Assembly (NCBI GenBank): GCA_020055645.1
Contig: CM034547.1
Coordinates: forward strand, 67,056,884-67,120,883
Direction of reading: 5' to 3'
Origin: Tomocerus qinae
Lineage: Eukaryota; Arthropoda; Collembola; Entomobryomorpha; Tomoceridae
Length of the DNA stretch: 64,000 nt
The notes beneath the pieces were generated by a model. That model did not search any database. It had not been told where the DNA came from and saw only the letters and a list, made by a program, of their open reading frames with translations. Made by a program: the position numbers and the translations under genes. Within the stretch, counting starts at the first letter, position 1; each line of letters opens with the position of its first letter. Below, in pieces: positions 2,131 through 35,733 of the stretch.

Positions 2131-5100
2131 GTGGAAGTCCCTATCTTCGTTAGCATTCAACACTTGAGCATGTTTGTAAAATGTCGGAAGGTTGGCCGCA
2201 CCTGGACCAGACAGCACCTGCCCAGCACATCATCCGAATCTCTTGTGACTTTCTTTTGAATATCTTTAAACCCACATCAAGTTTCCGAATTTGAAGTATT
2301 GATCCCATGTAATCCAACATCTTTATTTCGCTCACCTGTTCTAACCGGTTTTCCATGGCTATTTGTAAATACTCGGGCTGGGTGGAAGTAAGTAAGTAGG
2401 TGTGAGTGAGTGAGTCTATGGAGAGTGTGGCGTATGTATTTGTTTGTCCATCCATGAGAGTGTGAGTGAAAGTCTGTGTATAGGTATAGCTGAAGAGAAA
2501 AGTTATTTTGCTTACTGACACCCTGGGGATGTCCAATGACGTAAAAAGAGCAGATCAGAAGCCACAGGAACCAACTCCTCTCTTTTCCATATTACTAGCT
2601 ACTTACTTAGTTAGTTAGTTGTTAGTTATACGCGTCTGTTATGTGATGGGTGTTTGGGGACAGATACACATCTTCCTATTCATACAAACATCCACCTCTA
2701 TCTATAGAGATATAATTCCGGAGGAGCTCTGACGTGACTTCAAAAGTTAAAACTCACTTTCTCCCTCCCAATTTACTTTCTCTATAGAGAATATTTTATT
2801 CCAATAATATACTATATTTTCTCCAGACGAAGGATTACTTTCTCCAGATGGAGATTGGAGAAAAGTCAGTATGAAATATTAGCCAGTCAGAATTCTATTC
2901 AGCAAATAGATGAATTTCTTTCGGAGTAATTGCGCCAGGCTAGTTCCGAGAAGTCTTTACTCTCTGCTCCATAGGCAGACGCTTATGTGAAGATAAGAGC
3001 AGGCCAATCCGTCAATAGATAATTGAAATTCGGAAATATCCGCGCGATGCCCTTTGGGATGTTTTCGCAATATTAACTGCAAAATACTTTGATAACAAAT
3101 CCAATGCTTCCTTTCCCAACGTACAAAAACACCGAAAGCAAACTCCTACATTGAATTATTAAAATTTTTAACAGAATAAATTGCCTCCAGAGTTTTCTTC
3201 TCAGAAATCCATCTGTAGATGCCTACAAGTAACAGTTTGTTAAATAGCCAGGCTTATGCTCTAAATGCAAACTATACAAACTACCGAGTTTACTTTTTCA
3301 TTTCTACGAACTCCTTTTCTGTTTACCATCTCTTCCATTACTCCTCTGCTCTCTTCAAGTTTAATTTCAGCTTCTCTGGCTTTTCTTCCCAATTACCAAA
3401 TATCTCCCCTCTTATACACATGTACATCCTATAGAAGTAGCAGCATACCTAATTTGCTTTGTCTGACTTCCCAACGGCCTTAGGCCACATTCTAGACGAA
3501 ACTCTCAAGATAAAGTTCAATACCCACAACTTTTACATCCTCTAAACAAACACGAATCCTCTCTCGCTCTATATACACCGCATTATATCAACTCGGGAAT
3601 TAAATCAGATAATAGTCAAGTACCTCCCTACATAAAATCCTTTCAAATTTTCATTTCTTCTCTACATACTAATTTCTATCCCGAATTACTAACTTTGCAC
3701 AAATTATGAACTATCATCTGCTGCATATTTAAGTAGTGGCATTTTAAGTACCGCTTCAATCAAAAGAATCTGTCTTTAAAAACCAGAAAAACTTTGTTCG
3801 CCATTCTCACCATAGAATTACTATTTTATAGACTATAAAAACTAGCTTTTAAATCATTACTGATCTCTAGTTTGTTCTGCATCCACATATTCTACATCCT
3901 TCAAGAAAGGAAGAAAAATAATTATACCTCATTTTTAATACGCTTTTCTCTATTATTTAGGTCTCCATTACTGTTTCTAACTTGGTCCAATTCACATAAG
4001 GATTTCTTTATTTTGAAGACGAATTTAAAAGATGTACCCCACCCCAAAGCATACCTTAACAAACAATTTAGTGCATGAAAGTATACGCTGGGATGTGACG
4101 TCAAGAACAACCTATATATGTATAATATGTCTATCTACAATGCATGGGTTGTTCAGTAATTTTTATGTATACAAATATCTACAATCTATAAATACAAGTC
4201 AAATCCATTTAATTTAATTGCTTTATATTTTTGGTCTAATTAGCAGGCATAACCCGATCATTCTGTATTAGTGGTAGTTGTCAATCTACACATTAGGGAT
4301 ATCTGCATATGAAGTTGCAATAGAACTAAATATAACCTTGTTCTACTGTGCTCAGGAACTTTAAACAATTATTAAATGTTTAAAAGTGGAGTACAAGTGT
4401 TCTGTATTGCGATAGTTTACGAAAGTAAAAGCCAACAAGAAGATGTTGTTAGGGCAGGACTTATTGGTATGATACTTAAGGCCACATGCGACAACAAGAA
4501 ATATCTATGCCGTAAATCCTCTTTTGAATCCAAACTGTAAATTATGTATACTTGATGAAGAATTTAAAAAAATTGTACCTTACCTTAAAAATTAGCCAAA
4601 AAAGTGTCACAAAGTATGCAAAGCAAATATTGTTGCAATAATAACCTTTGGTAAGAAGAAAAATTCAAAAATCCAAAAATTGCACTTTTTTCAATTCTTT
4701 GACTTTCCCTATCTTATATCTGAATCCTTTCTTCCTTATGCATATTCAAAGGTGAAAAGTCTTAACCAAATTATAATGGTAAACAAACTATAAAGAAGGA
4801 TTTATCCCACTTAATTAGCTTAGCTGTCACTATAAAATGATAAATATGTCTGTCATAATAGTAGAATACAAAATGGTAATACTGTTAACATTTTATGTAC
4901 TTTTACGGTCAAGTATATACTAATTGCTTCTTTTAATAAGGCAGAAGTTTAGTAGATAATTTGAGGACTGTTGATTGAGTAGTCCTGAGTTTTAATTGGG
5001 TATTTACTGCATTTGAGTCTGAAGATCAGGGTGTAGTATTTAAGCCAGTCACTCGGAGACCTACTTACGATTAGAGCGTTGTTATTAGATTTTCTGTCGC

Positions 5101-6099
5101 TGTGAAGAAGAATGGCACTGCAAAGTATCCTGCTACAGCCAAAAACAGAGTACATGGAGCAGGAGAAACAAAGTGTAGTGCTAGGACTGCTTAACGATAA
5201 GTAGAAACTACAAATCCACTCTACGCTTTCTCCGCAACTCTCACGCTCTTTCCTTTTATTACACCTTGAGAAGACTTTTGCGACAACTGTCGCCTGACAC
5301 AAATTCTGTGCAATTAAGATCCGAGTCTGATGTAATGCAGAATACGCTGCCTACTGCTACACATTGGTAGCCGCACATATTGCATTATGCCTATATAACC
5401 CATTATGTAAATGCAACTTTCTCCGACAGCAATTAAAAATAACAGAGACTATTTTTACATGTTGCGTGGAGAAAATATTAAAGTGCAACAAATTCTTTTA
5501 AGTTTCTGGGATTTTAATAGAGATTATTGGGGAATGTATCTAGCGTTGCTTGTCTAGGGGATCGGAAAGTTGCTTGTTGCTTTTTGCAATGTGCTGCATT
5601 TCTTTAATTTTTCCCAGAGCAGCACAAATGGAAGAACAAGACAGTCGTAATTGTGAGTTTACTTTTTTTATGTTGAATTTTGTATTGCTGGGACGGAGGG
5701 AGTAAAAAGAAATTTTGCAAGACTACTGCAGTGCAGTGCAGTGAATGGCTTCATTAGGAAAAAAATCTTTAGACAAGAAAGACACTAATACCTACACGGA
5801 TACTTTCTCGACTTTCTCCATAGACATAGAAGCAGCATACTGTGATATTATATCTATAATAGTGAAAAACAAAGAGGGAAAGCTTAGTTATAGAGAAAGC
5901 AGCTTGGTGACCTGCTTTTCCGACTTTCTCTTTTTGCTAGATAGTTTCTGCAGAGTTGTGTATGTCTGAGTTGGCCAAGGAGAGGAGGAGGAGGTAGTAA
6001 AAGCTTGATAGGTCCTGTGGTTTCGTCTCTGCACTCACTACTGACACTCGGTCACACTTTTCTGTATCGGATGTAGATGCAATGCTGGGATTTTTGTGT

Positions 6100-6560
6100 C
6101 CAATAATAAGTATAAGGGGAAACTGAAGTGAAGTAAGAGAGACATTCTTTCCAGAAGACAATCTGATGGGATGTGATCGCCTGGATCGAGTGAAAAGTAG
6201 TGCAGGACTTGAGAGTGTGCATCTCGCAGCAATAGGTTAACACTAAAACTCTTAGGATCTCCAAAGACTCAGCTGTTTCCTCAGATTTGTTCCAAAAAGT
6301 CATGTCTCCCCTCCAACCAGTCAGACTCCAGACTTTCTGTTACATCACAACTGTTGTCTTTCCTTCCTCTTACTCACTTCTAATGTTTCTCAAATGAAAC
6401 ATGCCGAGCGGAAAATTGCCTCCACTCCAGACTTCCTCATACTCTATCCCCTATCCACATAACTACTACTACTACACCTTAAATCCGCATTTTTACTCAA
6501 TTCATTAACTATGCCAAAATATATACCGCATCCACTTTCTCCACTTTCTCCAACGCTCCT
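6100..6560. other. G-to-C skew island
   Basis: The left part (about 6100-6240) is G-rich on the plus strand and the right part (6300-6560) is C-rich, with two adjacent ACTTTCTC copies near 6534 and 6543. No coding potential. Confidence 0.5.
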
Positions 6561-8279: not shown

Positions 8280-8566
8280 TGTGTTTGTATAAGAAATGCA
8301 TACATGAAGTTAGGTTAGGAGGTAAGTTAGGAGTGGAATGGTAATAAGTTTATAGGGAATTGTGTGTGTGAGATTATTGCCAGACTTGACTTGGGTTCCT
8401 TTGGAAGTTGGAAAGCGTCATCTGCTTTTAAGTCTCCCTGTAGAATAGAATAGCTGACGATAATTCGTCAGCTCAGTCACATCAGTGAGCAACATAAATA
8501 AATCCATAACATTACATCACTTCCCATAACACACACATGCTCGGCACTTTCTACACACACATGCAT
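8280..8566. other. G-to-C skew island
   Basis: Positions 8280-8440 are GT-rich with very little C; 8480-8566 are CA-rich. The right side ends at the TA that flanks a Tc1/mariner-like insertion. Confidence 0.45.
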
Positions 8567-9120
8567 GTACAGGGATAGTACTAAGTTCCAATACACGTTT
8601 GTCGGCTAATAACTCAAAAACTAGATCAGGTAGAGAAATGGGAGTACTACCATTGGAAAGAGGCTGAACTAACTTAAAGATTGGTATATGACAAGTAATT
8701 ATTTAAAAGTAATTAATAGTCAAAAAATAATGATGAACTAAAATTTAATTTATACATGGGAAACTATAGGGAACAAATACTCGACATTAATTAACTTTTG
8801 TAAGTTGTAAAGAATGTTTCGTGTGTAAAAACTACTCGGAAGTGATTTGTCGTGTCAAGAATCAATTTTTGACCATAATATTATCCCCACATCACGCTAT
8901 TATTAAAAGTGTAGTTAAAAAGTTTATGGCCTAACTCTTGAGACATTTCTCCACTGTAAAATGGTGGTTTCGATTGGTCCAGTACACTTGATTCCTTCGA
9001 TTAAAAATTTCATTGAGATTATAAAATTGCACTCATCACTCCACACTTTTCAGCAAGAAGTGATAAGAAATCGTTACAGAATTCACTCGGTTGACTCGGT
9101 TGATTTGATGAAGTCTCATT

Positions 9121-9316
9121 CAGTGTTCCATTTTAGCCGGCTTAAAAGCTTTATGACCAGTCGGCTAGTCATATTAGCCAGCCAGCCGGCCGGCTAAAAC
9201 GGCCGGTCTCCGAACCCTATAGTTTGATTTTAGCTGGCTAACAAGCTTTTTGGCCAGCCGGCTACCCATTTTAGCCGGCCTGCTGGCTGGTTAAAATGGC
9301 CGGTCACTGAATACTG
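9121..9316. mobile_element. hAT-type MITE, 196 bp, GC-rich, nested
   Basis: The element starts CAGTGTTC and ends in the near-complement GAATACTG. It is flanked by exact 8-bp copies of GTCTCATT (9113-9120 and 9317-9324). Eight-base duplications and CAG-type ends are typical of hAT elements. The body is built from repeated ATTTTAGCCGGC-like words in both orientations, unlike the AT-rich surroundings. It lies inside the mariner-like element and therefore inserted later. Confidence 0.8.
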
Positions 9317-9339
9317 GTCTCATTTGTCTGGGATTATTT

Positions 9340-9661
9340 CCTGGACATTGGTAGGCCAGTAACAATGATACAGACTTTTCTTTAATGCTTTTTGGACATT
9401 AAGCCCACGTATTCCTAAATTTTTAGAAATGGCTCGACTGGACTGACTTGGCTTAGAGTACCGACTTTTCAATTCTTACTTTATTTTATTCTGTGAGGAC
9501 GACAATTGGGGGGGGGCAGCTCGCGTTCGGTCATCTACTGCATTTCGAGTTTCTTCAAACTTTTTAATTACACTTTTAATAATAGCGTGATGTGGGGATA
9601 ATATTATGGTCAAAAATTGATTCTTGACACGACAAATCACTTCCGAGTAGTTTTTACACAC
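9340..9661 (-). pseudogene. Tc1/mariner-type transposase fragment, frameshifted
   Basis: On the minus strand the first frame contains YSEVICRV, then IIKSVIKKFEETRNAVDDR, the pattern of the N-terminal helix-turn-helix of mariner/IS630 transposases. After a run of ten C residues (plus-strand G run near 9509) the frame shifts. A second frame continues with SSRAISKNLGIRG and VQKALKKSL, matching the second helix-turn-helix segment of this family, and stops soon after. There is no DDE catalytic domain, so the product cannot be an active transposase. The family call rests on motif recognition; the subfamily is not determined. Confidence 0.65.
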
Positions 9662-10369
9662 GAAACATTCTTTACAACTTACAAAAGTTAATTAATGTCG
9701 AGTATTTGTTCCCTATAGTTTCCCATGTATAAATTAAATTTTAGTTCATCATTATTTTTTGACTATTAATTACTTTTAAATAATTACTTGTCATATACCA
9801 ATCTTTAAGTTAGTTCAGCCTCTTTCCAATGGTAGTACTCCCATTTCTCTATCTGCTCTAGTTTTTGAGTTATTAGCCGACAAACGTGTATTGGAACTTA
9901 GTACTATCCCTGTACTTTCCCCAATGCTGAGAGTGTGTAGGCTGGGTAAACAGGAAAGAGAGTTATGTGTACTAACAATGCCAATACTATAGGTAAATAC
10001 AGCTCTTGGAATTTGCACAATTTAATTTCACCTTGAGTTTGACTTTCTCTCCTGCTCTGTGTATTTAGTGTGTGCGGATCCCTTTGTCAATTTCCATCCT
10101 TTACTATTTATTTCCCTCACTCTGTGGGAAATCCACCTTTGCCCTTGCTAAAATATCCTCCCGCGATAAATTATGGTGAAAACCCACGCCTTGGCACCGA
10201 CGAATTCCATAAATACAAGAAATAAATGGAAATAAAAAGAGAAAGTTGGGCTCGGCGGCAGAATTGCGTCAATTTCACGTTCGCCGTCCTAAATCAAAGA
10301 AATAATAATCCGTATCTCTGTGTTTCTGTTCTCCTAATATGTTTGAATGCATGACTTTGTTGGTTTTAT

Positions 10370-10760
10370 TTTATGAAGGGGAACGTGGTTTATGCACGAT
10401 TATGAAGGCAATTATGGAGAAGTGAGTACTTTCTACACTCGACTCGGCGGGAGAAAGGCACGTACTAAATTAAACAAATTAAATTAAGTGTGACAAGTGA
10501 GACCTGACTGACTACAACTAAAACGTTAAGTGTAATGTAATGCCATTCGAGAAAGGAGCAGGGAGAAAGTCACACGATTTTTCATGCCATCTGATCTGAT
10601 GTCAGCTGAGTGGAGGACTCAACTCTTCACATATATAATCGCATTACGTCCGCATTGTCTCTTCCTCAAGGCCTCGCTCCTACAATTATCCTATTTTATT
10701 TTATTCTGTTTTCTCCAGCTCTACATACTTTCACCGCAGACTCTCTTTCACTACCAACTC
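10370..10760. other. G-to-C skew island
   Basis: G-rich plus strand at 10370-10580 gives way to C-rich sequence at 10600-10760. GAGAAAGT occurs at 10563 and ACTTTCAC near 10728. No coding potential seen. Confidence 0.5.
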
Positions 10761-10893
10761 TTTTCAAATAAATTATCCTTGCCAACGGAAAGTCAAATCT
10801 CAACTTTTGTCACTGTGGGAGAAAGTTAAGGGGATCTCTAGTATAGCTATCTGATTAAGCTCCACACACGATATACTGCTAAAATTAGGATCC

Positions 10894-10926
10894 ACTTTCA
10901 CCATGTTTAAACAGCATGGTGAAAGT
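10894..10926. repeat. Perfect 12-bp hairpin made of the GTGAAAGT motif
   Basis: ACTTTCACCATG and CATGGTGAAAGT form a perfect inverted pair separated by a 9-base loop. Each arm carries one copy of the regional motif, so this is a motif palindrome rather than a random hairpin. Confidence 0.8.
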
Positions 10927-11259
10927 ATCACTATATTTTAATCCTTGTGCTTTACATCTCGCAAATTTTAGGCTCATGCTGCACCAAAGGGAGCGGTTAT
11001 ATAGAATTTCGTGTTTACAGAAAAAGAAAATAGCATGTGAAAAGAAAATTGCCATTCACATGGTGAAAGTGGTAGGGACTTGACACTGTATTGGTTTGAA
11101 ATGCATTTGTATAGCCCTTCAAATATAGGCTGATCCCAATTACAGCATTTTTTTCTGCTTTGTAGTATTCCTACAAGAAAACTTTTTCTGTGTACTAAAA
11201 GAACTTTCACGAGGATAACTCCGGTTATATTCGAGGGTTTCTCCTGCAGTTTGTTGTAG

Positions 11260-13300: not shown

Positions 13301-14599
13301 CTTAACATGAATGCACTTTGAAAATGTTTGATAAAGGTAGATAGTTTAATGCGATTATGCCATCAAAATGAAAAAAAAACATTACACTTTTGAATTGTTT
13401 TGCATTTTTACAAAAAAATCAATACAATTGCGTATGAAGAAGTCAAATCACACAGGATTTCGACATTAATAATGGATTTAGAATTTCATGAACATGAAGA
13501 GAATATAGCACGAGGATGTTTCATGTAGATAGCACTACATCTTCAGAATAAAATCGTAGCTTTTGGCTGGACTGCTAAATTGCGTAGCTTAACTTTGGCC
13601 CTGTAGCATGGAGCTATCTCTTTGCGTGTGTCATTCAACTATGTCACATATATAGTCCCTGTCGACATTCAGATCGATGAAAGTGTCATTTTTCACGAAA
13701 AGTGGCCAAACGCACAGATTTCATATTAGTAAAACCAGAAACCATCGAATAGTGGCTATGTGTATAAATATTCAGGTGACAGCTGCGTGCTCTAGTTGCT
13801 ACAATAATAATCTTAAGCTTTGAAATGAGAGTCAAACGACGAGAGATACATAAATAAAGGGAAGGGAGGACTACAATAATGGATGTTATCTAAAGTTCAA
13901 ACGTCCATTGCTCGTAAAAAGACAGGCGAAATGACAAACAAAATTGCAATTCCATGTATATACATTACAGTTAATATAGCTAATTTGATTTCAAGATATA
14001 ATGCATATGAGTAGTAGGGTACACAAGGTTTCCTACTACTTACTATAGTTATACTTACTATATACAGTGTGCACAATAAATCAGTTGACGTATACTTTCT
14101 ATATAGTTTTGTTCGGGCATAATTATTGATGTAAGAGGGGAGAAAGTGAGAAATAGTATTCATAATTGCGATATCAAATGCTTTGCTATGCTTTTCTATA
14201 ATTTATGTACATTTGTTTGTCAGTATATTGACAAGCATCACTATATTGCACACGACGCTACTGTTGTGTCCACATAAAGGGAGGATGTAAAAAAATAAGG
14301 AGTCTATTTGGTTCTTCCTTTGCTGGAGGCTTTTCCTTTCTCCGACTTAGCTTAAGCATTATGTAGCCCTAAAATACATATTTACCTTTATGAATATAGG
14401 ACTAAGGATATTATAGATGTAGGTAATAGTATTTGGCTATATAAAATGGGCTAGGATGTGGCCGTCCTATTTATACGTGCGTAGGTGTGAGTGAAAGCAC
14501 ATGCACTCGGTAGTGAAAATACGCGGTTATTGTTATCTTCTTTTAAAACAACTTTCGCTTTAGTCTATCTCGGTATTTTCTCTGTCTGGCTATATAAAG

Positions 14600-15540
14600 A
14601 TACCTCGGTATGTAAATTGTTATAGAGAATGTAGAAATAATGAAATAGGGGAAACTGTATGTACTAGAAAAAAAGCAGCAGAGAAGTGAGAAAAAGTAAA
14701 AGTATGATGTGTAAACACAATAGACCTTAATGCCATGCATTAGACAGAGAATCGGATTCAGTGAGCCATGTCCTACACCACACTGTCTCTTGAAAATATA
14801 TTCTGTAACAAGTAGGAGTAGAGAAAGGAGGTTTTCTCCTTCCTTGCCACACACACAGACTATTGTATGTAGGTGAGGGAGAGAAAGTCGTATGAAAAGA
14901 TATAAATTGTCGACTAAATCCAATCCACTCAACTGACTGCAGTGGAATAACTTTCTCTGCCTTCCAAATCGAAATCAATGCGATGCAACTTTCTCTTCTC
15001 TCACCTATGGGCAAAGTGAGTGTCTCTACTCAAAATGAAACGTATGGTTATTCTAAGTCAACAGAATGTTGACTGTCTCCTTTCCTTAAACGATCTTTCT
15101 CTATTTATATTGGTGCAGGACCAGTGCGAAGGACTAAGTGAGTACGTAAAGACTTGTCCGGAATGGAATAGCACACCAAACACTTCACTTTCACTCCACT
15201 TTCACTCTCGAGTGCAATACCCTCCCTATACAAATATCTACCTGCATTCCCTCCACTTCACCTTTCACGTGTCTCCTCTTATCTTATCTCCACACCAAAG
15301 CTCAACTTATTACTCTACCTCTTCCGCACTATCTCCACATCTAGTATTCTCCAAATCCACTTCCCAACTCTCTCTCGCTAACAATATCACCAGTTATCTC
15401 CGTATAACTATACCCCATTTCAAACAAATTTTAACATCTTTTCCCATACAAATTTTATATTATAACCTTTCCTACCTGTCATTTCCTATTTCTTATTCGC
15501 ACATTCTGCAAAATCCTTCTTCCACATCGCTAACTTTATG
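14600..15540. other. G-to-C skew island
   Basis: By count, 14641-14700 has 16 G and 4 C, while 15181-15240 has 3 G and 22 C. Motif orientation follows the skew: GAGAAAGT at 14881, then ACTTTCTC at 14950 and 14988 and several ACTTTCAC to the right. A 173-codon open frame at 15020-15541 exists because of the pyrimidine-rich composition and is not a convincing gene. Confidence 0.6.
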
Positions 15541-15673
15541 ATCCACTATGCACATCACTCTTTAAGACATAGATAACATTTATTTACATTGGTATAAATT
15601 ATACTTACGCATTCCGAATGAAAGAACTTTTTTCCAACATAATTCTACATTAAAGCAGACGTTATTCTTGCTA

Positions 15674-15739
15674 CTTCACTTTCACCATTTAAAAAATCCC
15701 TCTTTTTGCACTTACAACTATTTTAAGGTGAAAGTGAAG
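15674..15739. repeat. Perfect 13-bp inverted pair of the motif
   Basis: CTTCACTTTCACC at 15674-15686 is the exact complement of GGTGAAAGTGAAG at 15727-15739, with a 40-base spacer. It is another case in which the regional motif is arranged as an inverted pair. Confidence 0.8.
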
Positions 15740-16019
15740 TGAAAATTCAGTGAAGAGCCAAATAAATTTAAGTGTTTTTGTCACGGGAAAAGATTTTCTT
15801 GTTAACATTAGCACAAAAGAAGTGCAATTTGGGGAATATTGTCAATTTTACAAAGAATTGGGGGCCTAAACAGTTATTAAGCGTTTAGTAATTCGATATT
15901 GTAGTTATTAAATCCAAAGAGATATTTTGGATTACATTTTCCTATGCTCTTAAAGGATTATTTTATATTAAAGTAGTATATAAAAAAAGTATTTGGTGTG
16001 CCATATCTGTAAGGAAAGA

Positions 16020-16560
16020 TAAAATGTAAGGTACATTGGGTATAAGGATACAAAAGAGAAAAGTGGAATCAGGATAGAAAGAAGAAAAAGTCAAGTCGAT
16101 TTGAGTCGGGACTGACGAGCGAATTCTCCAATGGGCTACTTTTGTGCTGTGTAGTGTGGCGAGTGGACGAGTCTGGACAAGTAGAGAAATATGTAGCTAA
16201 ATATATAAAAGTGGAGTAGGTTGATATTATATTTATTACTGAATGTATTTCATTTCGTTCTCTTTATGCTCAGTGAGTGAGTCCGTCAGTTCAGGTCAGT
16301 TATATTTTTAGGCTTTATTCCCATCAGCTTAACAGGAGATACAACTCGGCCTGAATTTTTAGAGAGAGAAAGGGCAAGTGAATTTCTCCTTCAACTACCA
16401 CCACTAAATATATCTTACTAATAGATCTGTATTCTCTGCACTGACTATAAATCTATATTACAGTTCTTTCAGCTCTTCCCAGCACACTCTCTATTATGTC
16501 CACCACCACTTATTATTAGTACCATCTATATAGACATCTACACAGTGACCGCAATTTCGC
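16020..16560. other. G-to-C skew island
   Basis: G- and purine-rich plus strand at 16020-16220, C-rich at 16380-16560. Confidence 0.45.
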
Positions 16561-17216
16561 TCGACAGCGTATTTTGTCTTTATTCAGTTCAATACTAAAA
16601 TAAAGTATAATAAAACAGTGCAATTACGTTTATCCGTTTTTAAAATTTTACCCTTTCATTTTACTGAATTTTCACACAATCCTAAGCTTAGGTTTACATT
16701 AAAAATTCGGCAAAATTGGTCGACGTGGAAAATCTGACTCAAAAAATTGGATAAAAATTCGTTAAAATTTGTCAAAATAAGTGGTTAGAGAGACAATTGG
16801 AAATGCCAAATTTATTTTGAGATTGTTAGCACAAATAAAGTAAAAGTACGATGTCTACTGATTTCTGACCATACAGTATAAACGATGTAGTTGGGAGAAA
16901 GCAAAGATATAAGTACATAAGTGCCATACGTAGACATAGAGAAAGTTTATACTAGAGAGTATGTTGAGGAGAAAGTCTAGTTTTGAGTTCTATTCTATTT
17001 CCATTTGCTATCATTGTAGTGCAACCTTTCGTCATTCTTATATGCTTAGAATGAAATAACTTTTTGGCTCTTCTTCTTCATGTCTGTCATGTCAGGTCTG
17101 TTCCTTTCACTCTCTACTTCCCTTTCCTATATATAATATCATATACCATTTCAGCCCAGTGACTTTCTCCGAGTTCCTATTCGATTGCTTTGTTTTGAGC
17201 AAACTGGACACATGCT

Positions 17217-17300
17217 ACAGATAGATATAGATAGAAGGTTATCTATCTGTCTGTATATAATCTATTAAAAGAATATATATATATGTATATATAATCTATA
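17217..17300. repeat. Simple ATAG/TA repeat
   Basis: A GATA-like run (agatatagatagatag pattern with its complement atctatctgtctg) is followed by a TA-rich run and a second complement. A microsatellite with local self-complementarity and no gene. Confidence 0.6.
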
Positions 17301-17329
17301 AATGATTAGAGCAAAGCAGTGAAATATTA

Positions 17330-23119: not shown

Positions 23120-23560
23120 AAGTACCTCTTTTGAAGAAAGGAGGCTGGTTATTGAGGTTACGTTGCATAGAAAATAAAAGTGGGATGGATGATGTGAGTC
23201 ATACTGTATGTTTGAAATCTGTCCATCAGTATGCATGTAGTAAGTTGATATTAAATACAGTACCTATTGATGGAGACTCTCTGAGTGGTAATATAATGTA
23301 TTATTTGGTGTTCCTATTTAGCAGACTCCTATATAGATCCAAATAGCGTAGTTGTGTTGAGTAAGGGAAGACATGAGAATGGATGTAAGGAATGTAGGGA
23401 CACGAGAGCCTATTTCCATTGTGTGTACATATTTATGAGATTGCTACACTACATTACACACTCCTGCCTTTCTCCATGTGTTCCCTCTGCACAGCATTTC
23501 CCACTCGCTCAACAGCTTTCTTTTCTATTTTCGTCCATCTAATAACCTACCTACGTATTT
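23120..23560. other. G-to-C skew island
   Basis: G-rich at 23130-23410 and C-rich at 23440-23560 (about 24 C to 5 G in 23461-23520). Confidence 0.5.
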
Positions 23561-24306
23561 ACTGCATACCAGCTATAGGGAATAGGGAACTATTTACTTC
23601 AAGTAACCCAACGTACGGTTAAGCTAAAGTTAAGCCAACAAGAGCACTGCACTGATAAGTATCTTCAAAAGGTGTAAAGTGAATTTTCCTGGGAAAATCT
23701 TCACAATGTCTTTATCAACACAAAATCCTCTACTCTCAGCTGAATTGAACTGTACAAATTATTCTCTCTCTATAATGCATCGCACACTTTCCCTGCAGAT
23801 TCAACCCATAATGTTACAGACGCGTATTTTCGCTTTCTACAATAATACCTACGACCAATATAGACATTATATCAGTACAAATAAAAACAACCTATAGAAA
23901 ACCTTTTGAGTGACGATGTAGTAAAATCGTACGATAAAATTGAAATTATAGATTGCTTATAAAATAAATAACAATTAATTCTTTCCATATTTTATACTGT
24001 GATTTTTCAATAGATTTTTCACTTTCACCGGTTAAAAAAATTAGCGCAAAACACTAAAAGAATCCGAAATTGAAAAGTTTTTATCAATTGACGTGGTGAA
24101 AGCCCGGGGAAATTCTGAAATGGAAGGGAAAAGGTGTACTAAACTGTCCTAAAAATTCATCATGTAGCGTTAAAAGATTGACCAACAAAATAAAAAATTC
24201 TTAAAAATGGGAGAACAATTCTCTGTGGTATTCTTGACATAATGTGCAATACTATATATTGTAACTACGACTATAACTAGTTATATATATAGTCAGAAAT
24301 ACATAT

Positions 24307-24363
24307 TATGTGGTTAAAGTCAGATCTACCTATGTGGTTATAGTCAGATCTACCTATGTGGTA
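24307..24363. repeat. Short tandem repeat, 24-bp unit
   Basis: Two full copies and a partial third of a unit that begins TATGTGGTTA and ends CAGATCTACC. The copies differ at one base. Confidence 0.8.
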
Positions 24364-24419
24364 AGTTAGTGCAGGGTGGTAATGTAATTTCAATAAAGAA
24401 ATGAGGATGCATGTCCTGT

Positions 24420-24740
24420 CAATTGAAGCGTTGCAGTATAAATATGTGCAAATTGAATGTACAAGGGAGAACGGCATGTAGACATGGGTCGTGCATATAT
24501 TTAGTGGAAAAAGGAGAGAAGGTGAAAGTGACAAAAGTGAAGAGTGCTTGAGCACAGAGAAAAGATCTCATGGAGCTCACGATGAGTTGAATCCATCCAT
24601 TCACGTCTATTGTGTTCTGCGTTGTCGTGTTTTCAATACTCAAGTCAACTGGGCTGAAGCCATAAGGAACGACGCTCTAACTAAACAACACGCTCCGTGT
24701 GACAACTCAACCGAGACTCTCTGAATATCATATCTGTAGG
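24420..24740. other. G-to-C skew island
   Basis: G-rich at 24420-24550 with GGTGAAAGTGAC, then C-richer sequence at 24600-24740. Confidence 0.4.
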
Positions 24741-27700
24741 TGAAAGTTCACATCCCATTTTGGCAGACGACCCAATAAACTCTTTAGTTCTATCAATACC
24801 ATTTATTACTCAAGAATTGTCATAAGTACAAACAACCTGTCAAACGGATGTAAAAATGGTAGCGGTTTTCTGGATTCAAATACCCCTCAGTATAGGTTAA
24901 TGTATCATAATGAATTCTTACTTTAGAACCGAGTTTAGGGTGGAACAGTTCCATTATGGAAACTTTCCCAATTCCCGTGGGTGAGATAATAAAAAAGAGT
25001 GGTAGGCAAAAAGTCGGAAGTTCATTCGGGATTAAGTGGGAAGGTTCAATGTTAGCAGCAACTTTCCCATTATTCCCAATTCGCATGGGAACTTTTTATA
25101 TTATCTCTGTAAACTTTCAATGCGGGAATTGGGAAGTATTGAAACCGTGTTTTGAAGAAGAGTGTCCACATGCAAATGGACAGACAGACAGACTAACATA
25201 CTATTCTTATGGAGTAGATTACCGCTACTTTAACGAATCATATTATGACCCAAGTGGACCATCTTCACATTTTTCTGATATTTTGTTTTTGTTTGAATGT
25301 GTTGAATTGTCAAGTATGGTTGAGAGAGGCTAATGTATATTAAAAAGAGACACTTTCATTAAATGGCTTACCTCAGGATGGAAATAATGGGAAGTTCTTG
25401 TGGTTTGACTTTTGCGGTTTTCTGGCTCTGCGCTTTTTTCATGAAGGTTCGGAACACTTAGAAGTAAATGGGAAGAGTGCGCAATCTTTAACGGTGATGC
25501 CATCATATCATGCTTTTTGAGTAATGTATAGCTTTTATGTTTTCTGCAGGTGATCAAGCAAGCACTTTGACTTCCACCCAATAATAATTAACTGTGTAAG
25601 TACCAGGAACTGCACAATTAATGTTTTACAAAGGTATAAGTGTTACAGTTTCGAATCTCTATAGTTTATAGTGCGTGAGTAGAAGTTTTATTAGTTTAGC
25701 ATAATATGCTATAATGCTGTAAATGGAGAAAGTAATTACAAATTATTTTATTTGAATTTTTTCACTTCATGGATTTGAGAGTTTGTTTTAGTAGTGGGTC
25801 GTTAAAATGTGTTTGGTGCTGAAGTTGTTGGGAGAGGATAAGTGCGGGTTAAAGTTCTAGTTGATGCTTAAAGTTTCTATTGGACTAGATTACTGGAAAA
25901 GTCGAAAGTGTGTGAAAGAAAGTTAATAATAAGTAGAAGAGTAGTAATTTTTTAGTGGTGGCACTTTGTAAGAAGAGGAAGGGAAGAGGAAATCCTATCG
26001 GCTTATCATCCAACACACTACAAGCACACAAGAGAAAGATAGAGCGACCACAGTAGATCAGTGGGGAAAGTGAGTGGGCCAAGTGAAGTCGACAGGAGAA
26101 AATAGTCGGCCTGCACTGATGCGACTTTTACTTCACTTTCACTAGATAAAATAATGAATTGTATTTTGAAAACCTGCAATGCTTTCACTGCAGTTCTAGT
26201 TTAACGGCTTCCTTGGGACGATTAGCAACTGTCTCTTTAACAGTGCCTGTAAATTGCTACTTTCTCCCTTTAATATCTGTTTTGGTTTTCACAACAATAG
26301 TTTATTATCCTTAGCCAATTCCTAATTCTGGAATATTTACAAAAGTTTTTAGAGTGTGTCCTGATATAAAGAGTTTGAAAATTTTCTCCAAGTTTTTTTA
26401 GTCTGTTTTTTGAAGTCCAACTTTGGAAGCAACGAACTTTTCTTTTACTCGTCCTAGAGCTACTTATAGTTACCACTAAAGGAGTAAATACTGCAGAAAG
26501 CAGAGAGAAAAATGAAGGATTTGGAGGGCGTTAGCCTTCGTTATTGTCTTCCACTTTCTTTCTAGTTCTACTCGGGGCTACGGTAGAGTGGCTTGGAAAA
26601 GATTCCAAATATAACCAAAAATTCAACTGGAGAAAGTACGTGGAATTAGGTGCAGTGAAGATGCAAATAGGTTTCTGTCCGGAGTTTTCTCTTATTATTT
26701 GTGCAGGGGTATGTGTTAGATATAGTCTTACAGGTTAGTGCAGTAAGAAGAAAATAGAAAGGAAAACAAAGTCCTTTACTTTCTCCGGAGTGAAAGTCCT
26801 AAAGTTTTTCTTTCACGATTTGAGTTTCTTTGAAGACTTTGTGCGTTGGCAGAGTTGATGCTTTGGTTTGGTTTAGTTTCGTTTAGCTTGGCTGGCTCAT
26901 TTCCTTCCTTCCTCAGACTTCGTTTACTTTCTCCTATATGTAGGTAAGTAAGTACAGTGAGTGTGAGTCTCAAGAAAGTTAAAAGACAACTTCTAAATTT
27001 AAGAAACTTAAACTAAATAGAAAGTAAATCGCCACAGTTCATTTTTCATCCTTTTCACTGTATAAACAGTTAAAATCTCGTTTCATTTAGTTAGTTGCTA
27101 AAGTGGGGAGAAAGATGTGGAGATACCCAAATGTGCTATATACTAAGTCATCAGTGTTCATTTGGATCTTTTGTCTTGTCAATTATTATTAGGCAAGACG
27201 AAGGACTACAAAACATATCCGTATGTCCAGAAACACTTTCTCTCCCTATCAATTTACTTTAACTCAGTTAATTTTACAGGACGGCTGAATTCTTTGAGGA
27301 AAATCAAATCAATCAGAAGATGTTTCTTGGTTGAGTGACGTCCCGTATTTTCTCTTTAGTAGTACTCTCACTTCAGCTTTCTTTACACGTGTCCGAAGCT
27401 TTTCGTAATAATAGTCAAGTCCATTCTGGTGTAGTAGTTAGTTGGAGTCCAGACACAGTCAAGTCTTTAAGAAAAATTAGAGTTTCTGTCAGACGAGCGA
27501 TATCGATAGCTTACTCGACAAGTCTACTTAATAACTTTCACTTTCACCAACTCTCGTTCTTTCTCCGCACTGGGAAATTCTCCTTTCCCGATAAATAGTT
27601 GCGGTGTACGGGAGATAACAACAAAACTTGTGTTAGTGTCTTCCTCTCAGGAATGTGCATAAGTAAAATATGTACAGCTTAGTAGAGCCACCGGCTTGTC

Positions 27701-27759
27701 CGTTCTACTTTCTCTTAGCTTTCTAATATTGTTCAGTAGCGGCTAAAATATTTATCAGT

Positions 27760-28920
27760 CTGGTTTGTCGCGGAGAAAGTGCAGGTTTGTATTGACAGTA
27801 AGAAGAGTGAATTTGTGGCAGGAGTAAAGTAACGAAGCACAAGAGAAATATTTCGGCTATCGAATGACTCCGATGCGGAAGGAGAAAGCTAGACTGAATC
27901 CCAGACACACATGGACATCCGTGAAAGTTCTCCACGAGAATATTATTGAACGAATGAACAAGCTAGAGAGAAAGTTCCCAGAGAAAGCAGGCTGATGAGC
28001 TTGAGCACTCGCTCCTTTAGCTTTCTCTTTCCGTCCGCACACTTTTCTCTCTTCCTTATAGGGACACCGATATTATTTGCATCCCTTGCCTTTCTCTATT
28101 GTGTTTATATCTGCTTTCTCCACAAATGCAATACATACATACGCTATAATATTATGTAATGCAATGCAAACGCTTTCTCTCTCTAATATTTTCTATTGAT
28201 AAAGATCTAGAGGAGTGTAAAGTGCTTTCGTTTGGAGTCTAGCAAAGTTCCGTGCATAGTGAGCTTTCTCCTGCCGGAGACTTGTCTATATAACTTCCAG
28301 TCCGTCCTCTCTTTCTCTCCCCCTAGTATCCACACTGTACTTATGTAGTGAAAGTGGTCGCACTGTTCCCGTTTCTCTTCCAACATCCAACGGGAGAAAG
28401 CAACCAACTCTCCCTCCATCCACAGCTAACCAAAGGATTTTTGCGCACAAACTTACCGCAGGAGCAGCAAGGAGCATCAACAGCAAAGTCAACTCACCCA
28501 AGCCAAGTCAACTCACACACATCCATATACACTTTCACTCACACAGACCACCACTACTCTCCTTTCTCCTACAGACAGACTCACCTACATACATACACAC
28601 ATATATTACATTATACCAAACACATCTCATCCCTTTACACTTTTACTACTCTTACACATCCTATACTGACTGCCTTTTGCTAAATCATGCGCAATTCACA
28701 TTTTCGCATGCTGGATTCTCCCTTTCACTCCGACTAAGTGTCTACTCTCTATCTATATCATCCCACACTCTCAAATCCCACACAATCATCCTGTCTTTTC
28801 TCCATTATATCTCAAATGAGTAAATTCTATATATGAACGCTAACTACTCATCTCTATTGTACCACTATGTACATCCCATACCATTCCCCTACTAACTACT
28901 GTATTACTCCATGTACAACT
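27760..28920. other. G-to-C skew island with motif strand switch
   Basis: GAAAG-type words occur on the plus strand at 27773, near 27880 and 27920, and at 27968. From about 28018 to 28725 nearly all are CTTTC instead, and the plus strand becomes strongly C-rich (28400-28920). The densest motif cluster in the window. Frames here (such as 28348-28683) are compositional, not coding. Confidence 0.55.
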
Positions 28921-29667
28921 AGAGAAAGCAAAGGCCAGAAAAAGCACAACTAAGTTACTGGAACTCATTTAACGTAATTTTCCATATAATATGTTACATG
29001 CATAATGTAATGTTTTATTCTAAAGCAATAGTTAAAATATTTCTTTAAATAATATTTTCCAAGCACACTACATAGTATTAATTAGCTGATATAATAATTA
29101 AGTATTTTAATATATGTAGTTAGTTAACCACGGCATTACATAAATTGATACTCTTTTGGCATACCTAGCCGATTTTTCGCAATATACCTATGTAGAATTA
29201 TGAATACAATATTTAGAGTAAATAAAAGAATGAAATCTTAAATTAAATCGCACCCATGTTTACATCGGTCTATCTAGCGTTTACTGTTTCGAAATCACTT
29301 TCACATGGGAAAACTGGTGAAAGAGTTCTGCAGCATGCGTCTAAAGTAATACTTCATATACCTATCTCAATGTAAATGAGATTTCTCTTTTTCAGTATAA
29401 ACTCTAAACTACATAACCACTTTAACTCAAGAATGATATTGCGAAGGTCATGTAGCTTTCACATGGGAAAGTATAACACCGAATTTAGGGTTACATAAGA
29501 ACGATTATTTTGTACATGCTCTGTAGATACTAAAATTAAAAGCCAATTCAGCTGGAGTTTTTACATACAAGATCTCGAGATTCTTGTTCCGGTCAAATAT
29601 TAGGGTTTTGGGATTTTAAAGCCAAAATAGAAAACATCAAAATCGAATTCTGTAGATCTAGTGTTAA

Positions 29668-30923
29668 CAGATTTTATTTACCACTTTTTAGGCTTTTTTA
29701 CCATCACAGTGGTAAAAATGCACTTAATGGTAAAAATGGTTTAGCGATTGATTAGACAGTTTAGAACAGGAACACTAGACTTTCTAAAATAAAAGTTTTA
29801 AAACTTTATTTTCTACTAGTGAACCCAGCTAAGGGGGTAGAATCTAGCACACAAGTAAATTTCTTTAGGCCACCCATCACAGTAACAAAAACAATTCCAA
29901 AAATCATCGGTACTTCACTACGGTTTTTATGTTAACCAGTACTACATATTTTTATTTAATTCTACAAAAAAGGTGAGCAAACTGGCACAAAGAAATCAAT
30001 GGGGCATTAAAAAGTAACAGCAACTCTACTAAAAAATGCTAAAAATATAAAACAATTTGTCGATTTAGCAGAACTAATTTGCATTAGAAGTTTTGAAATG
30101 CTAATTAATACACACATTACGATCATTACAAAATGTCCCAGTTCGCTAATCATTACCATTCAATCACCAATAATCAATTTTTAGGTGAATGTCTATTATT
30201 GTTTTGATGTCATAATAATTTATGAAACAATTCATTTCGGTGGTTTAGAGGAAGTGAGCATGCGCATTTTGGTTTAAAGGAACCTGCATATATTACGTGT
30301 GTAGTTGTTGGGGGAGGAGGAGGTGGAATCCAAAAGTGTGACATTCAGCACTTGCGTTACACATTGGGGAGGGGGTTTTGCGTTACGTAATGTATGCAAG
30401 TTTCCTAAGCTCTCCTACCAGACATACATACATAGATAGATTGGTAAATTTATTGTTTATCTCTTTTCTGTGTTTATAATATATAAAGAGATGAAATATT
30501 TTCAATTAGCCCCTTAATTAATTTAATCCAATTTATTTGATTGTTCAACGAAGGATATAAAAAATGCTAGTAAAACAAGACCAATGCATTCGGCGTTGCC
30601 TATTTACAATTGATATGAATGTGCCAATTTAATTGCAGTTAATTTCTCAATCGGCAAGTAAGGGCTGTTAGTGGTTGAATTCAACTCTGATTAATGAACA
30701 CTTATAAATTTGTGATAATAATCATCAGCTGCTAAGCTATTTCAAACTTTGGCACCGAATTTTATTCAAAATGTATACACGAAATTTAAATGAAACTATT
30801 TTTTTACCATTTTTACCATTTATACCACTTACCACTACTTTTTAGGTAGTGGTATTTAACTTTAAATACCATTAAAAACCACTTACCATGCATGGTAAGT
30901 GGTAAATGATATTTTGTACACTG
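29668..30923. mobile_element. hAT-type non-autonomous element, copy A (with insert)
   Basis: The right end reads inward CAGTGTACAAAATA then TTTACCACTTACC; the left end is a diverged version, CAG followed by TTTACCACTTTT. Exact 8-bp duplications AGTGTTAA flank it (29660-29667 and 30924-30931), the hAT hallmark. Two further copies at 44.2 and 47.35 kb share its subterminal TTACCACT runs and internal words such as TTAGCCCCTTAAT and CTCAATCGGCAA. This copy is about twice as long because of a 676-bp block absent from the others. No transposase frame is visible. Confidence 0.8.
29816..30491. other. 676-bp block unique to copy A of the hAT-type element
   Basis: Copies B and C read directly across the junction (TTTTCTA joined to TGAAATATTT), whereas copy A carries this block at that point. 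I see no clear target-site duplication at its edges and no coding frame. It contains a short G-rich patch (about 30308-30375). It may be a nested insertion, or ancestral sequence deleted from the shorter copies. Confidence 0.6.
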
Positions 30924-30931
30924 AGTGTTAA

Positions 30932-33900
30932 CCCAAGTAAGCTTATTTTAAGCTAGAGAAGATAAGCATTCTTGGCTTTGTAATTTCCTGTCTTCGATTC
31001 AACCGTTATAGTGCCGTACGGCTGACTTTATAAGAGAATTTTGCATAAGGGCGATGTGAGACAGATTATTGAATATTAAAAATGCAATGATTGATATGAA
31101 TATTTTAAACATTCAAGAAATTCATACTTGTCTCTGCTTGTGGTTGATAAGATGCATAAATTTTAGATGACTTATTGGTAGATAATATTCAATTACTGTT
31201 GTATTGTCGAATATAATATATTTTCTTCACCAGTTTCTATTCCCCTTGCCGTTGACTTATGTATATTTTTTTTAGACTGTTAAACATTTCCAAAGTACGT
31301 ATCACATTTAGGTACACAAAATTATCGGAATAAGTCAGAGTTTTTGGCGTAAAATTATCATCAGCGATCAACTTCCTAGAACAATGTTTCATCAGTTTGG
31401 ATGTTTCTGATGTTCGTTAATTCGCCTCTCAATTGCAATTCCAGTCATTTACAATCTTTCCACAAAATTAACAATTAGTTACGGTATAATTCCGAACAAC
31501 TGCAATTCGGAAAGAGTCTATAGCGGAATTATTTAGAATAATATATTCATTCATTGTAAGAAAGTTTAGGAGAATTGAATCCCCTTCAAGATTTTTGATT
31601 CACATTCATAAACATTTCAAAAAAGTTTAGTAGTTTACAACGTATCGTAAGCGAGACCTGGAGTGTGGCAACAAAATTTCTACTAATAAGCTGAAGCGCA
31701 ATGTCCCATTCCTGATCACTTTTTGCATAATCTTATAATGTGTTCTGGTTACAAGATCACGATATGAAATTATGCGTATGTTATTTTATGTTAGTAATGT
31801 TACTGAAACTATTTATTGCAATTAAACTTGTATTTGAAATCAGATTTTGAAACAAGTAAGGTGTAAACATTTTTTAAAGTTTACACATGTAGATAAAAAA
31901 ATATTGTATGACAAGTAGGGGAAAGTAAATGTTACTGTGCAAAAGCTGGACTTACATGTAGGTCGAGAAAAGGTTTGGTTAAGAAGTTGGTAAATAGTTG
32001 GGTTGGCCTGTTGTGTTTTTTCTCTGGCCTTAGGACATGATACACGGAGAAAGTATATTGTATTCCTTTCTGGTTTTCTCCACAATGAATGCTTAGTAGA
32101 GTTTTGACTACCCTACAATGTAATAATGTACTATATGGCTGCATATATGGGGCAGAGGGAGTACGAAGAAGGAGAAAGTATATTTAGAGAAATGTGTTGG
32201 GCCTGTATTAATATAGGAATTTGGATGGTGGCAGTTGGGGAGAGTAGGAAGAAAAGTCAAAGCGGAGATCGTCAGAGTCATTTCATCGCCACTTCCTTTC
32301 TCTCTTGGAGCTGCATGAAAGAGAAAGAAGGGAAGTTAACCCAAAGAGAAAGCAAGAGACAAGGCTAAGGAGCACTTGCTCCAAATTCTACTTCCTTAAT
32401 CCACAGAGGCTTTAGTTTACTCTTAAGATATTTCGCTGGATATACTCCAGGATGTTGAAGCGTGAAGTGAAAGTGAACTACGTGCATAAAATGTCGTTCC
32501 AGTAAGTAATACAGAGACTACTGCAGACCTAGATAACTTAGCTCTGATGGCTCCTCAGTCGAGTCGACTTCTACAATAACTAATACTAATTGAGGTAGCT
32601 TTCTCTTTCTATCTCCTAGCTCCAACACCATAAATACTCAAACATAATAATATACGCCTACGTTAAAATACATAATATGCACTTCTTTCTTACAGGGTCA
32701 CTGCTAATCTCACACCACATATCCCTATTGCCTAAAAATTATTATTAAATAGGAAGAGATCTTTTCTTGCAAATAACTCCATATATATCATTAAACAGAA
32801 AATTGAGTGCTAACCACTTAGAAAATGTCATTGTATTAATGACATTGGGAAATGATCTTGGAGCTTGATATGTTATGGTTTTTGGGAATATGCTTAAATA
32901 TAGAAGGAAAGGTATCGATCGATTGGTAACTGTTATTAAGTACTACATTATGCATTGCATGAATTACTTATAAATATAATAATTATTGCATCAACTATGT
33001 TTCTGTATGGAGATATGTACTAAATCTTTCAGATTCAGTAACCACTTTTATTCGTTTGCTTATCCAAAATCCTAATACAGCCTATTAGACGAAGTGGAAC
33101 TTCAGTGCTTATTTTATAATTTTAAATTATTCCGATTGATTTTCAGTCAGGATTAGAGTTAGCGATAGGTATTTTGTGTAATTCCATGTTGTTATAACTT
33201 TCATCGATCTTTCACTGGAATTATATTCAAGATAATATGTAATTTTGACCTAGTGTAGTTCAAGTTATAAAAGAAAAAAAATGCGGGGGAGAGGAGAGGT
33301 TCAAGTGGGCGAAAATCTCATAATTGAGAAATGGAGTACTGTTGAAGTACATATGCATTTTCAAGATTGCAACAGAATAAGTTTAGTTGGTTTACCAAAA
33401 ATACAAGTTGAACGATTATCAATTTCGACCCAACGAGATTGAAATTGTTCCGAAAATTGTTCCGAAATTTTTAAATCATCCGCACTTGTTTGAGGGAAGA
33501 AAAAACTATTAGAATCTTTTCAATTTTCCAAAAAACAATAGTTCTAATTTACAGTTTCATGTAACTACAAAAAGTTGGTGTACCGTGGCTGTTCATATAT
33601 TTATGGATTGCAAAATTTTTGATTGTTCCGTCAAGGATCTTCCTATTTATTTTCTTATTTTTTTCAGTATTTCGAAGACCTTTGTGCTATTATAGGATAT
33701 TTCGAAAATGTTTTGTATTATTATGGAATAGTTTTTTTAGTATTTTTAAGAAGTTTCTTATTGTAATTGTATTCACAAACGGGAAACCAAGGAGGGTATA
33801 CTAATGCACCGGTCAACTGTGGGGCACGGACACGGAGTACGAGTGAAAGTGAACGAACAAATGAAAGAGATATGCTAGAGAAAACAACTTTCCCTGAGAG

Positions 33901-34395
33901 TTTTAACTTCCCAAGCACCACCTGTTTGATGCAAGTGAAAGACAGTGGCAGAGGAATACACTTTGCCGCGGTGTTGAAATTCTAGCAAAGTAGATAAAAA
34001 ATTGGCAATGTGCCATTTCGCTGAGGTAGTTTCTCGATGAGTAAAGCAAAGCTTCTCATTTTAAGCACACCAAGCCAAGGAGTAACGAGGAACTCATTAG
34101 AATCACCTCAGATCAAGATAACCTCATCATCGGCTGCGTGACGGATCGAGCGCATCAATGTATTCCAGCGCACCAAAACCGTGAAGCTAGCGTACTAAAT
34201 CTCCAGCGCACCATTTAGGTGCGGAATTCATTTCGCGGGTTTAATAATAAATACAATATTGTAAATTTAAATGTGCGCTGCAAGCCTACCTATCTAAATG
34301 AATGATAAAAGTAAGATAAACATGGGGAATAATTTGCTTAAAAGAAAGTGACTGATTTTTTAGGAATAGGTACGTGGTACAGAACGCTTATAACT
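30932..34395. other. Non-coding; tail of the motif domain
   Basis: AT-rich sequence with no supported gene. A last G-to-C skew island lies at about 32120-32700, with GAGAAAGT at 32047 and 32172. The final motif copies are near 33840-33945. Beyond 34 kb the motif becomes rare. Confidence 0.5.
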
Positions 34396-35725: not shown

Positions 35726-35733
35726 ATTAGAAG

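What the first reader, a model, noticed from the sequence alone, without database searches (positions are those of the whole stretch)
2700..33950. A 31-kb gene desert saturated with one short word, GWGAAAGT
GAGAAAGT or its complement occurs at least 35 times between 2756 and 32179, where base composition predicts about one. GTGAAAGT adds about twenty more. I saw no exact GAGAAAGT in the 30 kb that follow. The copies are dispersed, on both strands, with unrelated flanks, so they are not fragments of one transposon. Known systems with such dispersed word clusters include C. elegans homologue-pairing centres (ZIM/HIM-8 motifs), C. elegans type I piRNA loci (a CTGTTTCA core at each locus) and dosage-compensation recruitment sites. 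The GAAAGTG core also resembles PRDM1/Blimp-1 and IRF sites. Which of these applies, if any, is unknown. This is the strongest candidate in the window for an undescribed system.
Basis: partly seen in the sequence, partly recalled or inferred. Interest (0 to 1): 0.88.

Follow-up and report, generated by a model that had tools for sequence, protein, structure and literature searches.

The report
A 31-kb array of one motif
A gene-free stretch of an animal genome carries one short DNA word, RG(A/T)GAAAG(T/C), about 80-120 times where chance gives far fewer, most likely as binding sites for a single unidentified DNA-binding protein; clusters of this kind are known, but this one is unusually long and pure.

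Summary
GAGAAAGT occurs exactly 35 times, all within 2756-32179; GTGAAAGT 25 times, 23 of them within 2700-33950. Shuffles give 2-3 GAGAAAGT and 4-5 GWGAAAGT. The underlying word is RG[A>T>g]GAAAG[T>C]: RGDGAAAGY occurs 80 times in 1-34500 and once in the remaining 29.5 kb; GDGAAAG 122 times against 7. With repeats and genes masked by a hand-made list, density is 3.83 per kb in the desert and 0.38 beyond it. Flanks are no more alike than at random positions, the recognised inserts lack the word, both strands carry it, and one-mismatch copies are only modestly above background. No second word is comparably enriched and no partner lies at a fixed distance. Six-frame Pfam scans of 1-36701 found no domain. 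Best reading: a selected homotypic array of sites for one sequence-specific protein, probably a regulatory domain of a gene outside the desert. The protein is unknown: BLIMP1/PRDM1 fits in part; tandem IRF sites, nematode piRNA promoters and a repeat family do not fit. A chromosome-recognition (pairing-centre-like) array is not excluded. The genome could not be searched and the species is unknown, so whether this is one locus or many is open.

The parts
2466..33941 (.). The array: GDGAAAG sites on both strands, 121 between 2400 and 34000; consensus RG[A>T>g]GAAAG[T>C]
2466..2844 (.). Island 1: 4 sites
   Evidence: positions; the eight islands are grouped by eye and hold 113 of the 122 GDGAAAG sites of 1-34500
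5226..6550 (.). Island 2: 9 sites, includes two 9-base-spaced tandem pairs
   Evidence: spacings
9915..11210 (.). Island 3: 13 sites, GTG subtype frequent at 10.7-11.2 kb
14140..18200 (.). Island 4: 27 sites
23468..25068 (.). Island 5: 8 sites
25726..29471 (.). Island 6, the densest: 40 sites; 38 in 3.5 kb from 26001 and 18 in 1 kb from 27501
31919..32605 (.). Island 7: 8 sites
33209..33941 (.). Island 8: last 4 sites before the border
8567..9915 (.). Insert with 359-base inverted arms (99% complementary), free of the word except for one site overlapping its edge
29636..30959 (.). Dispersed repeat: two pieces (29636-29815, 30491-30959) 74-76% identical to pieces at 44.2-44.7 and 47.3-47.95 kb; the stretch is free of the word and fills part of one gap in the array
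34881..36662 (.). Duplication and 28-base minisatellite (about 30 copies) just beyond the right border of the array

Best explanation
The desert is a homotypic binding-site array for one sequence-specific DNA-binding protein that reads about 9 bp, RGWGAAAGY, in double-stranded DNA. Shown: strong enrichment, sharp core, both orientations, unrelated flanks, absence from the recognised inserts, islands of higher density, a border near 34 kb. Inferred: the sites arose mostly by point mutation (plus a few tandem duplications) and are kept by selection. The protein, plausibly a C2H2 zinc-finger protein with PRDM1/Blimp-1-like core preference, occupies many sites at once. Their sum makes the desert a regulatory domain (enhancer or silencer landscape) for a gene to the left of the window or in its right half.
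For: 35 GAGAAAGT and 59 GWGAAAGT in 1-34500 against block-shuffle means of 2.1-2.3 and 4.0-4.4. 7-mer GAGAAAG 68 observed, 8.4 expected; GTGAAAG 40 against 5.9. Of 6997 7-mers seen in the desert GAGAAAG is the most desert-biased, 68 against 2, and the next seven overlap it or are its variants. EM with a fixed prior, seeded with the word, gives a sharp matrix. One-mismatch 7-mers at positions 3-7 number 193 against 174 expected, excess 19 +/- 14, beside 108 intact GWGAAAG: few decayed copies, as expected under selection. Flank identity is at the random level. In unmasked DNA, 121 sites in 31.6 kb against 5 in 13.1 kb; 1 site in 2.9 kb of masked repeats inside the desert. Sites bunch: 38 gaps of at most 50 bp against 20.0 expected. 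Strands 57 and 65. The IRF-E/Blimp1 core is given as GAAAGT/C in PMC4497732 (passages seen), which matches GAAAG[T>C]. Homotypic clusters are common in regulatory DNA (PMC4621482, passages seen).
Against: No accessibility, binding, expression or comparative data exist here. The selection argument is not clean: one-mismatch 8-mers of GWGAAAGT (positions 1 and 3-7) number 99 against 71.9 expected, and at position 5 the 7-mer excess is 11.8 +/- 6.0, mainly GAGAGAG, so some decayed or weaker copies exist. Regulatory landscapes usually mix several motifs (general knowledge); here no second word approaches the first. The target gene is not in view. Homotypic clusters as I know them sit in single promoters or enhancers, far shorter than 31 kb (recalled). 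The full BLIMP1 consensus is rare. The comparison region is short (13.1 kb) and the mask was chosen by hand.
Confidence: 0.55

Rival explanations
1. Chromosome-level recognition array: a lineage-specific zinc-finger protein uses the array to mark this chromosome region (pairing, dosage compensation, heterochromatin or meiotic drive), as HIM-8/ZIM proteins do at C. elegans pairing centres.
For: One word dominates with no comparable partner word, no spacing rule was found, no Pfam domain. Pairing-centre proteins are C2H2 and read 12-base motifs enriched at one chromosome end (PMC7140621 and PMC9071541, passages seen).
Against: The array ends near 34 kb within this window and does not run on. Position on the chromosome and other loci are unknown. 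The pairing-centre review describes repetitive sequence; here the flanks are unrelated.
Confidence: 0.18
2. A general word of intergenic DNA in this genome: all or most gene-poor DNA carries it, and the right half lacks it because it is genes and transposons.
For: No genome-wide count was possible. The right half is rich in genes and repeats (16.4 kb of 29.5 kb masked).
Against: In the 13.1 kb of unmasked DNA to the right, density is 0.38 per kb against 3.83, and the right half is below its shuffled mean (GDGAAAG 7 against 12.6-13.2).
Confidence: 0.12
3. Mutational amplification: binding of a germline protein promotes short insertions that duplicate its own site, so the array grows without a function.
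For: Such insertions are reported for human germline sites and lead to motif clusters (PMC8559717, part of the abstract and passages seen). Neighbouring sites tend to share the middle-base subtype (p 0.007) and orientation (p 0.004; 0.029 after collapsing tandem neighbours).
Against: Collapsing same-strand neighbours within 20 bases removes only 9 of 122 sites, and flanks beyond the word are unrelated.
Confidence: 0.1
4. Clustered promoters of small RNA genes, as in C. elegans type I piRNA loci, each word driving one short transcript.
For: Dispersed, both strands, irregular spacing, unrelated flanks, gene-poor DNA.
Against: CTGTTTCA is absent from the desert (0, against 3 in 36.7-64 kb). No base or composition signal at fixed distance within 150 or 300 bp. 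No Rfam match.
Confidence: 0.04
5. Relics of one transposon or satellite family.
For: Repeated word in a non-coding stretch.
Against: Flank identity at the random level; the recognised repeats of the desert hold 1 of 122 sites; no tandem array with this unit among the 13 rows found.
Confidence: 0.01

Closest known systems
[quoted passage not shown] PMC4621482, passages seen)
   Same: Many sites for one factor, irregular spacing, both strands, islands of higher density
   Different: Known clusters lie in single promoters or enhancers (recalled); this one spans about 31 kb and shows no comparable second word
BLIMP1/PRDM1 sites, consensus AAGTGAAAGT (PMC7471511, one passage seen; core GAAAGT/C, PMC4497732, passages seen)
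   Same: G before the middle base and GAAAG[T/C] core; G (not C) at that place is the BLIMP1-favouring letter in PMC7471511. A motif predicted from the zinc fingers of a Drosophila Blimp-1, TGA[TG]ANGGA[GT]AA, also holds GGAGAA (PMC3445564, passages seen; a prediction only)
   Different: Middle base is A more often than T, the upstream AA is not kept, full consensus only twice in the window
C. elegans pairing centres read by HIM-8/ZIM proteins (PMC7140621, PMC9071541, passages seen)
   Same: Short word, many copies, one reader expected
   Different: Unrelated flanks here; chromosome position, reader and function unknown; the nematode 12-base words were not compared
C. elegans type I piRNA clusters (PMC6317315, PMC6436959, passages seen)
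   Same: Dispersed word on both strands of gene-poor DNA
   Different: Different word, no start-site signal found around it

Membership tests
Homotypic cluster of binding sites | One motif repeated well above background in one region | tested here: met
Homotypic cluster of binding sites | Sites not explained by a repeat family | tested here: met
Homotypic cluster of binding sites | Sites bound by a protein and acting on a gene | not testable with these tools
   no binding or expression data
BLIMP1/PRDM1 target | Full consensus AAGTGAAAGT | tested here: not met
   2 copies in the window, both in the desert, 0.43 expected, 5 of 100 shuffles reach 2
BLIMP1/PRDM1 target | G at the first place of the GTG triplet | tested here: met
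   G frequency 0.92-0.95 at that column (the seed contained it). Without a seed: GAGAAAG, GTGAAAG and GGGAAAG are enriched (68, 40, 14 against 8.4, 5.9, 4.8), CAGAAAG and CTGAAAG are not (4, 3 against 7.0, 5.9)
IRF target (ISRE-like) | Two GAAA half-sites two bases apart (recalled) | tested here: not met
   GAAAnnGAAA 10 in 34.5 kb of desert, 5 in 27.3 kb beyond. GAAASYGAAA 4 in the window, 3 of them in the desert, 1.07 expected and 0 of 100 shuffles reach 4: a slight excess, but 3 beside 122 GDGAAAG sites
C. elegans type I piRNA locus | CTGTTTCA upstream motif | tested here: not met
   0 in 1-34500
C. elegans type I piRNA locus | Start-site signal at fixed distance | tested here: not met
   largest z 3.3 among about 1200 tests within 150 bp; flat composition to 300 bp
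Pairing centre | Location at one chromosome end, bound by C2H2 protein | not testable with these tools
GAGA-type element | GAGAG repeats (recalled) | tested here: inconclusive
   GAGAG 98 against 35, GAGAGAG 14 against 6 in desert and 36.7-64 kb, but the AAA core is mostly kept

The most novel reading that the evidence does not exclude
The array is a dedicated nucleation platform, one of a small number in the genome, by which a lineage-specific zinc-finger protein marks a chromosome region for pairing, dosage control or silencing: an independent counterpart of nematode pairing centres in another animal group, made of dispersed single sites instead of repeats.
Probability: 0.15. Interest if true: 0.87.

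Novelty: new variant of a known kind. Interest (0 to 1): 0.55.

Why it matters
If the array is a regulatory domain, it is an unusually long and pure homotypic cluster and a natural test of how many sites one factor can integrate over tens of kilobases. If it is a chromosome-recognition array, it would be a new case of a system known well only in nematodes. Either way the word, its borders and its islands give direct targets for binding and deletion tests.

Tried and rejected
Unconstrained EM motif discovery drifted into a purine-rich background model (4344 expected 'sites') and was dropped; EM with a fixed site prior gave the matrix used. It was seeded with GAGAAAGT, so the core is not independent of the seed; the independent support is the word counts.

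Helical phasing of 75 same-strand spacings: none (p 0.09-0.91). Companion words near the sites: none beyond p about 10^-3.5 before correction, and that one (GAGAAA) overlaps the word. After masking, the best other words are weak: ATTGCAATT 9 counts at 6 places against 1.0 expected, GAGAGTGTG 7 against 0.4, AGTAAGTA 12 against 2.1. TGGGAA looked enriched against the right half (41 against 6) but less against the desert's own Markov expectation (29.8).

Coding explanation: 1-34500 has 33 stop-to-stop frames of at least 85 aa against a mean of 11.3 in 30 first-order Markov sequences, longest 186 against 108-166. However there is no Pfam domain, and no 351-base window has a strong period-3 signal (0 of 380 above 5). 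The period-3 test is weak, as only 2 of 300 windows pass in the gene-bearing half. Undetected exons without known domains cannot be excluded.

RNA-level function: strands are balanced (57 and 65), but orientation is weakly coherent along the sequence, so this was not fully excluded.

Literature: of the ten searches, the rows listed show no paper that describes such an array. I saw titles and abstract starts only, and often a part of the hits: the word itself (30 of 1375 listed, whole word GAGAAAG with 'motif', 0 papers), Blimp words (15 of 31, 5 of 5), homotypic clusters and deserts (10 of 10, 10 of 58), BLMP-1 (8 of 8), pairing centres (8 of 72), piRNA (8 of 21), sponge enhancers (3 of 3). 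The library holds open-licence papers only. Passages, no whole paper, were seen of PMC4497732, PMC7471511, PMC4773876, PMC3445564, PMC6854374 (no binding word found there), PMC6317315, PMC7140621, PMC9071541, PMC6436959, PMC4621482 and PMC8559717.

Full report
What was claimed and whether it holds. Exact counts agree: 35 GAGAAAGT, all between 2756 and 32179, and 25 GTGAAAGT, 23 of them within 2700-33950. No dinucleotide shuffle of the whole window came near (0 of 100; largest 9 for GAGAAAGT and 10 for GWGAAAGT). Nor did shuffles inside 100-, 200- or 500-base blocks that keep local strand bias (60 each, maximum 6 for GAGAAAGT in 1-34500). The right half is below its shuffled mean (GDGAAAG 7 against 12.6-13.2).

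The word. Counting all one-letter variants and fitting a matrix with a fixed prior and a seed gives R-G-[A>T>g]-G-A-A-A-G-[T>C], with weak A preference two to three bases after it. RGDGAAAGY is found 81 times in the window: 80 up to 33.9 kb and one at 43.5 kb, against 6.4 expected. GDGAAAG is found 129 times: 122 in 1-34500 and 7 beyond. Of 6997 7-mers seen in the desert, GAGAAAG is the most biased towards it relative to 36.7-64 kb (68 against 2), and the next seven overlap it or are its variants.

Not a repeat family. The 20 + 20 flanking bases of the sites are as alike as those of random positions: mean 10.87 against 10.80 of 40, maximum 22 against 21-25 in 20 random sets. A self-comparison found one insert with long inverted arms (8567-9915) and pieces of a dispersed repeat (29636-30959) inside the desert. 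Both lack the word except for one site overlapping the insert's edge. They fill parts of two gaps in the array (6544-9915 and 29465-31919); a third long gap, 19552-22613, holds only a short repeat piece.

A matched comparison. After masking repeats and recognised genes by a hand-made list, the remaining DNA carries 121 sites in 31.6 kb of 1-34500 and 5 in 13.1 kb beyond. A two-border model places the array at 2400-34000. The left border rests on about 2 kb and may not be real, since gaps of up to 3.4 kb occur inside the array.

Signs of selection. If sites were copied and left to decay, one-mismatch copies should be plentiful. At 7-mer positions 3-7 there are 193 such words against 174 expected, an excess of 19 +/- 14, beside 108 intact GWGAAAG of which about 14 are expected by chance. 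By my arithmetic that allows about 4% decay per base (10% at two standard deviations), while flanks are fully unrelated. Less favourable: position 5 alone has an excess of 11.8 +/- 6.0, and the 8-mer count, which includes position 1, gives 99 against 71.9 expected, so weaker or decayed copies do exist. The simplest reading is that sites arise singly and are kept. This is an inference from one sequence; there is no comparative evidence.

Layout. Sites bunch into islands (my grouping, holding 113 of 122), the densest with 38 in 3.5 kb from 26001. Strands are balanced, 57 and 65. There is no helical phase, no fixed-distance base within 150 bp beyond what about 1200 tests give and no marked composition shift within 300 bp. 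Neighbours share the middle-base subtype more than chance (p 0.007) and orientation slightly (p 0.004, or 0.029 after collapsing tandem neighbours). Few sites are tandem duplicates: 9 of 122 are removed by collapsing. After masking, no other word is comparably enriched.

Surroundings. The desert has no Pfam domain in six frames from 1 to 36701 and no Rfam match (for the window at gathering scores, for 1-36000 at E up to 0.5). The same kind of scan found a NUDIX and an EamA gene at 42-47 kb. A retrotransposon gag frame and a Pao-type retrotransposon lie at 56.8-58.3 and 61.7-64 kb, which points to an animal genome (recalled knowledge of Pao elements). Introns in the two genes look about 80 bases long (my reading) and GC is 35.5%. 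These fit a compact genome such as that of the sponge Amphimedon (64.2% AT according to a passage of PMC4773876) but also others; the species is not established.

Which protein? The core resembles BLIMP1/PRDM1 (AAGTGAAAGT; PMC7471511, passage seen; core GAAAGT/C, PMC4497732, passages seen), including the G that favours BLIMP1 over IRFs. However the middle base is mostly A, the upstream AA is missing, and the full consensus occurs twice. IRF tandem half-sites show a slight excess but are not the rule. I therefore file the word under no known factor.

What it most likely does. A protein that reads about 9 bp binds many sites over some 31 kb, and the domain acts as one regulatory unit on a gene not yet seen. 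Shown: the word, its right border within this window, its independence from repeats. Inferred: binding, selection, gene regulation. The main rival with larger consequences is a chromosome-recognition array; it predicts few such arrays, placed by chromosome and not by gene.

Verdict. Real, strong and unusual in length and purity; a new variant of a known kind (homotypic site clusters), with an open chance of something more novel.

Noticed in passing
8567-9915: 1.35-kb insert with 359-base inverted arms, 99% complementary, containing a 97-base repeat unit rich in GCCGGC; looks like a recent transposon insertion (target-site duplication not checked).
   Followed up: partly
55648-58791: Gag-like frame (retrotransposon gag plus zinc knuckles) flanked by 457-base inverted copies that are 99.6% identical; inverted flanks, not direct ones, are odd for a retrotransposon.
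   Followed up: no
61655-64000: Pao-type retrotransposon frame on the minus strand, running off the window.
   Followed up: partly
35789-36644 and 49873-50535: Two long minisatellites, 28-base unit (about 30 copies) and 40-base unit (about 17 copies).
   Followed up: no
29636-30959, 44192-44740, 47317-47952: Pieces of a dispersed repeat with three diverged copies in the window.
   Followed up: partly
1-34500: Minor enriched words: ATTGCAATT (9 counts at 6 places against 1.0 expected), GAGAGTGTG (7 against 0.4), AGTAAGTA (12 against 2.1).
   Followed up: partly
25037-25135: Local run of TGGGAA words, five copies within about 100 bases, several as AATTGGGAA or TAATGGGAA.
   Followed up: no
1-34500: More stop-to-stop frames of 85 aa or longer than first-order Markov sequences give (33 against 11.3), without Pfam domains or strong period-3 signal.
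   Followed up: partly
53954-54844: A 296-aa open frame without a Pfam match; a period-3 signal near 54.25 kb suggests that it codes.
   Followed up: no
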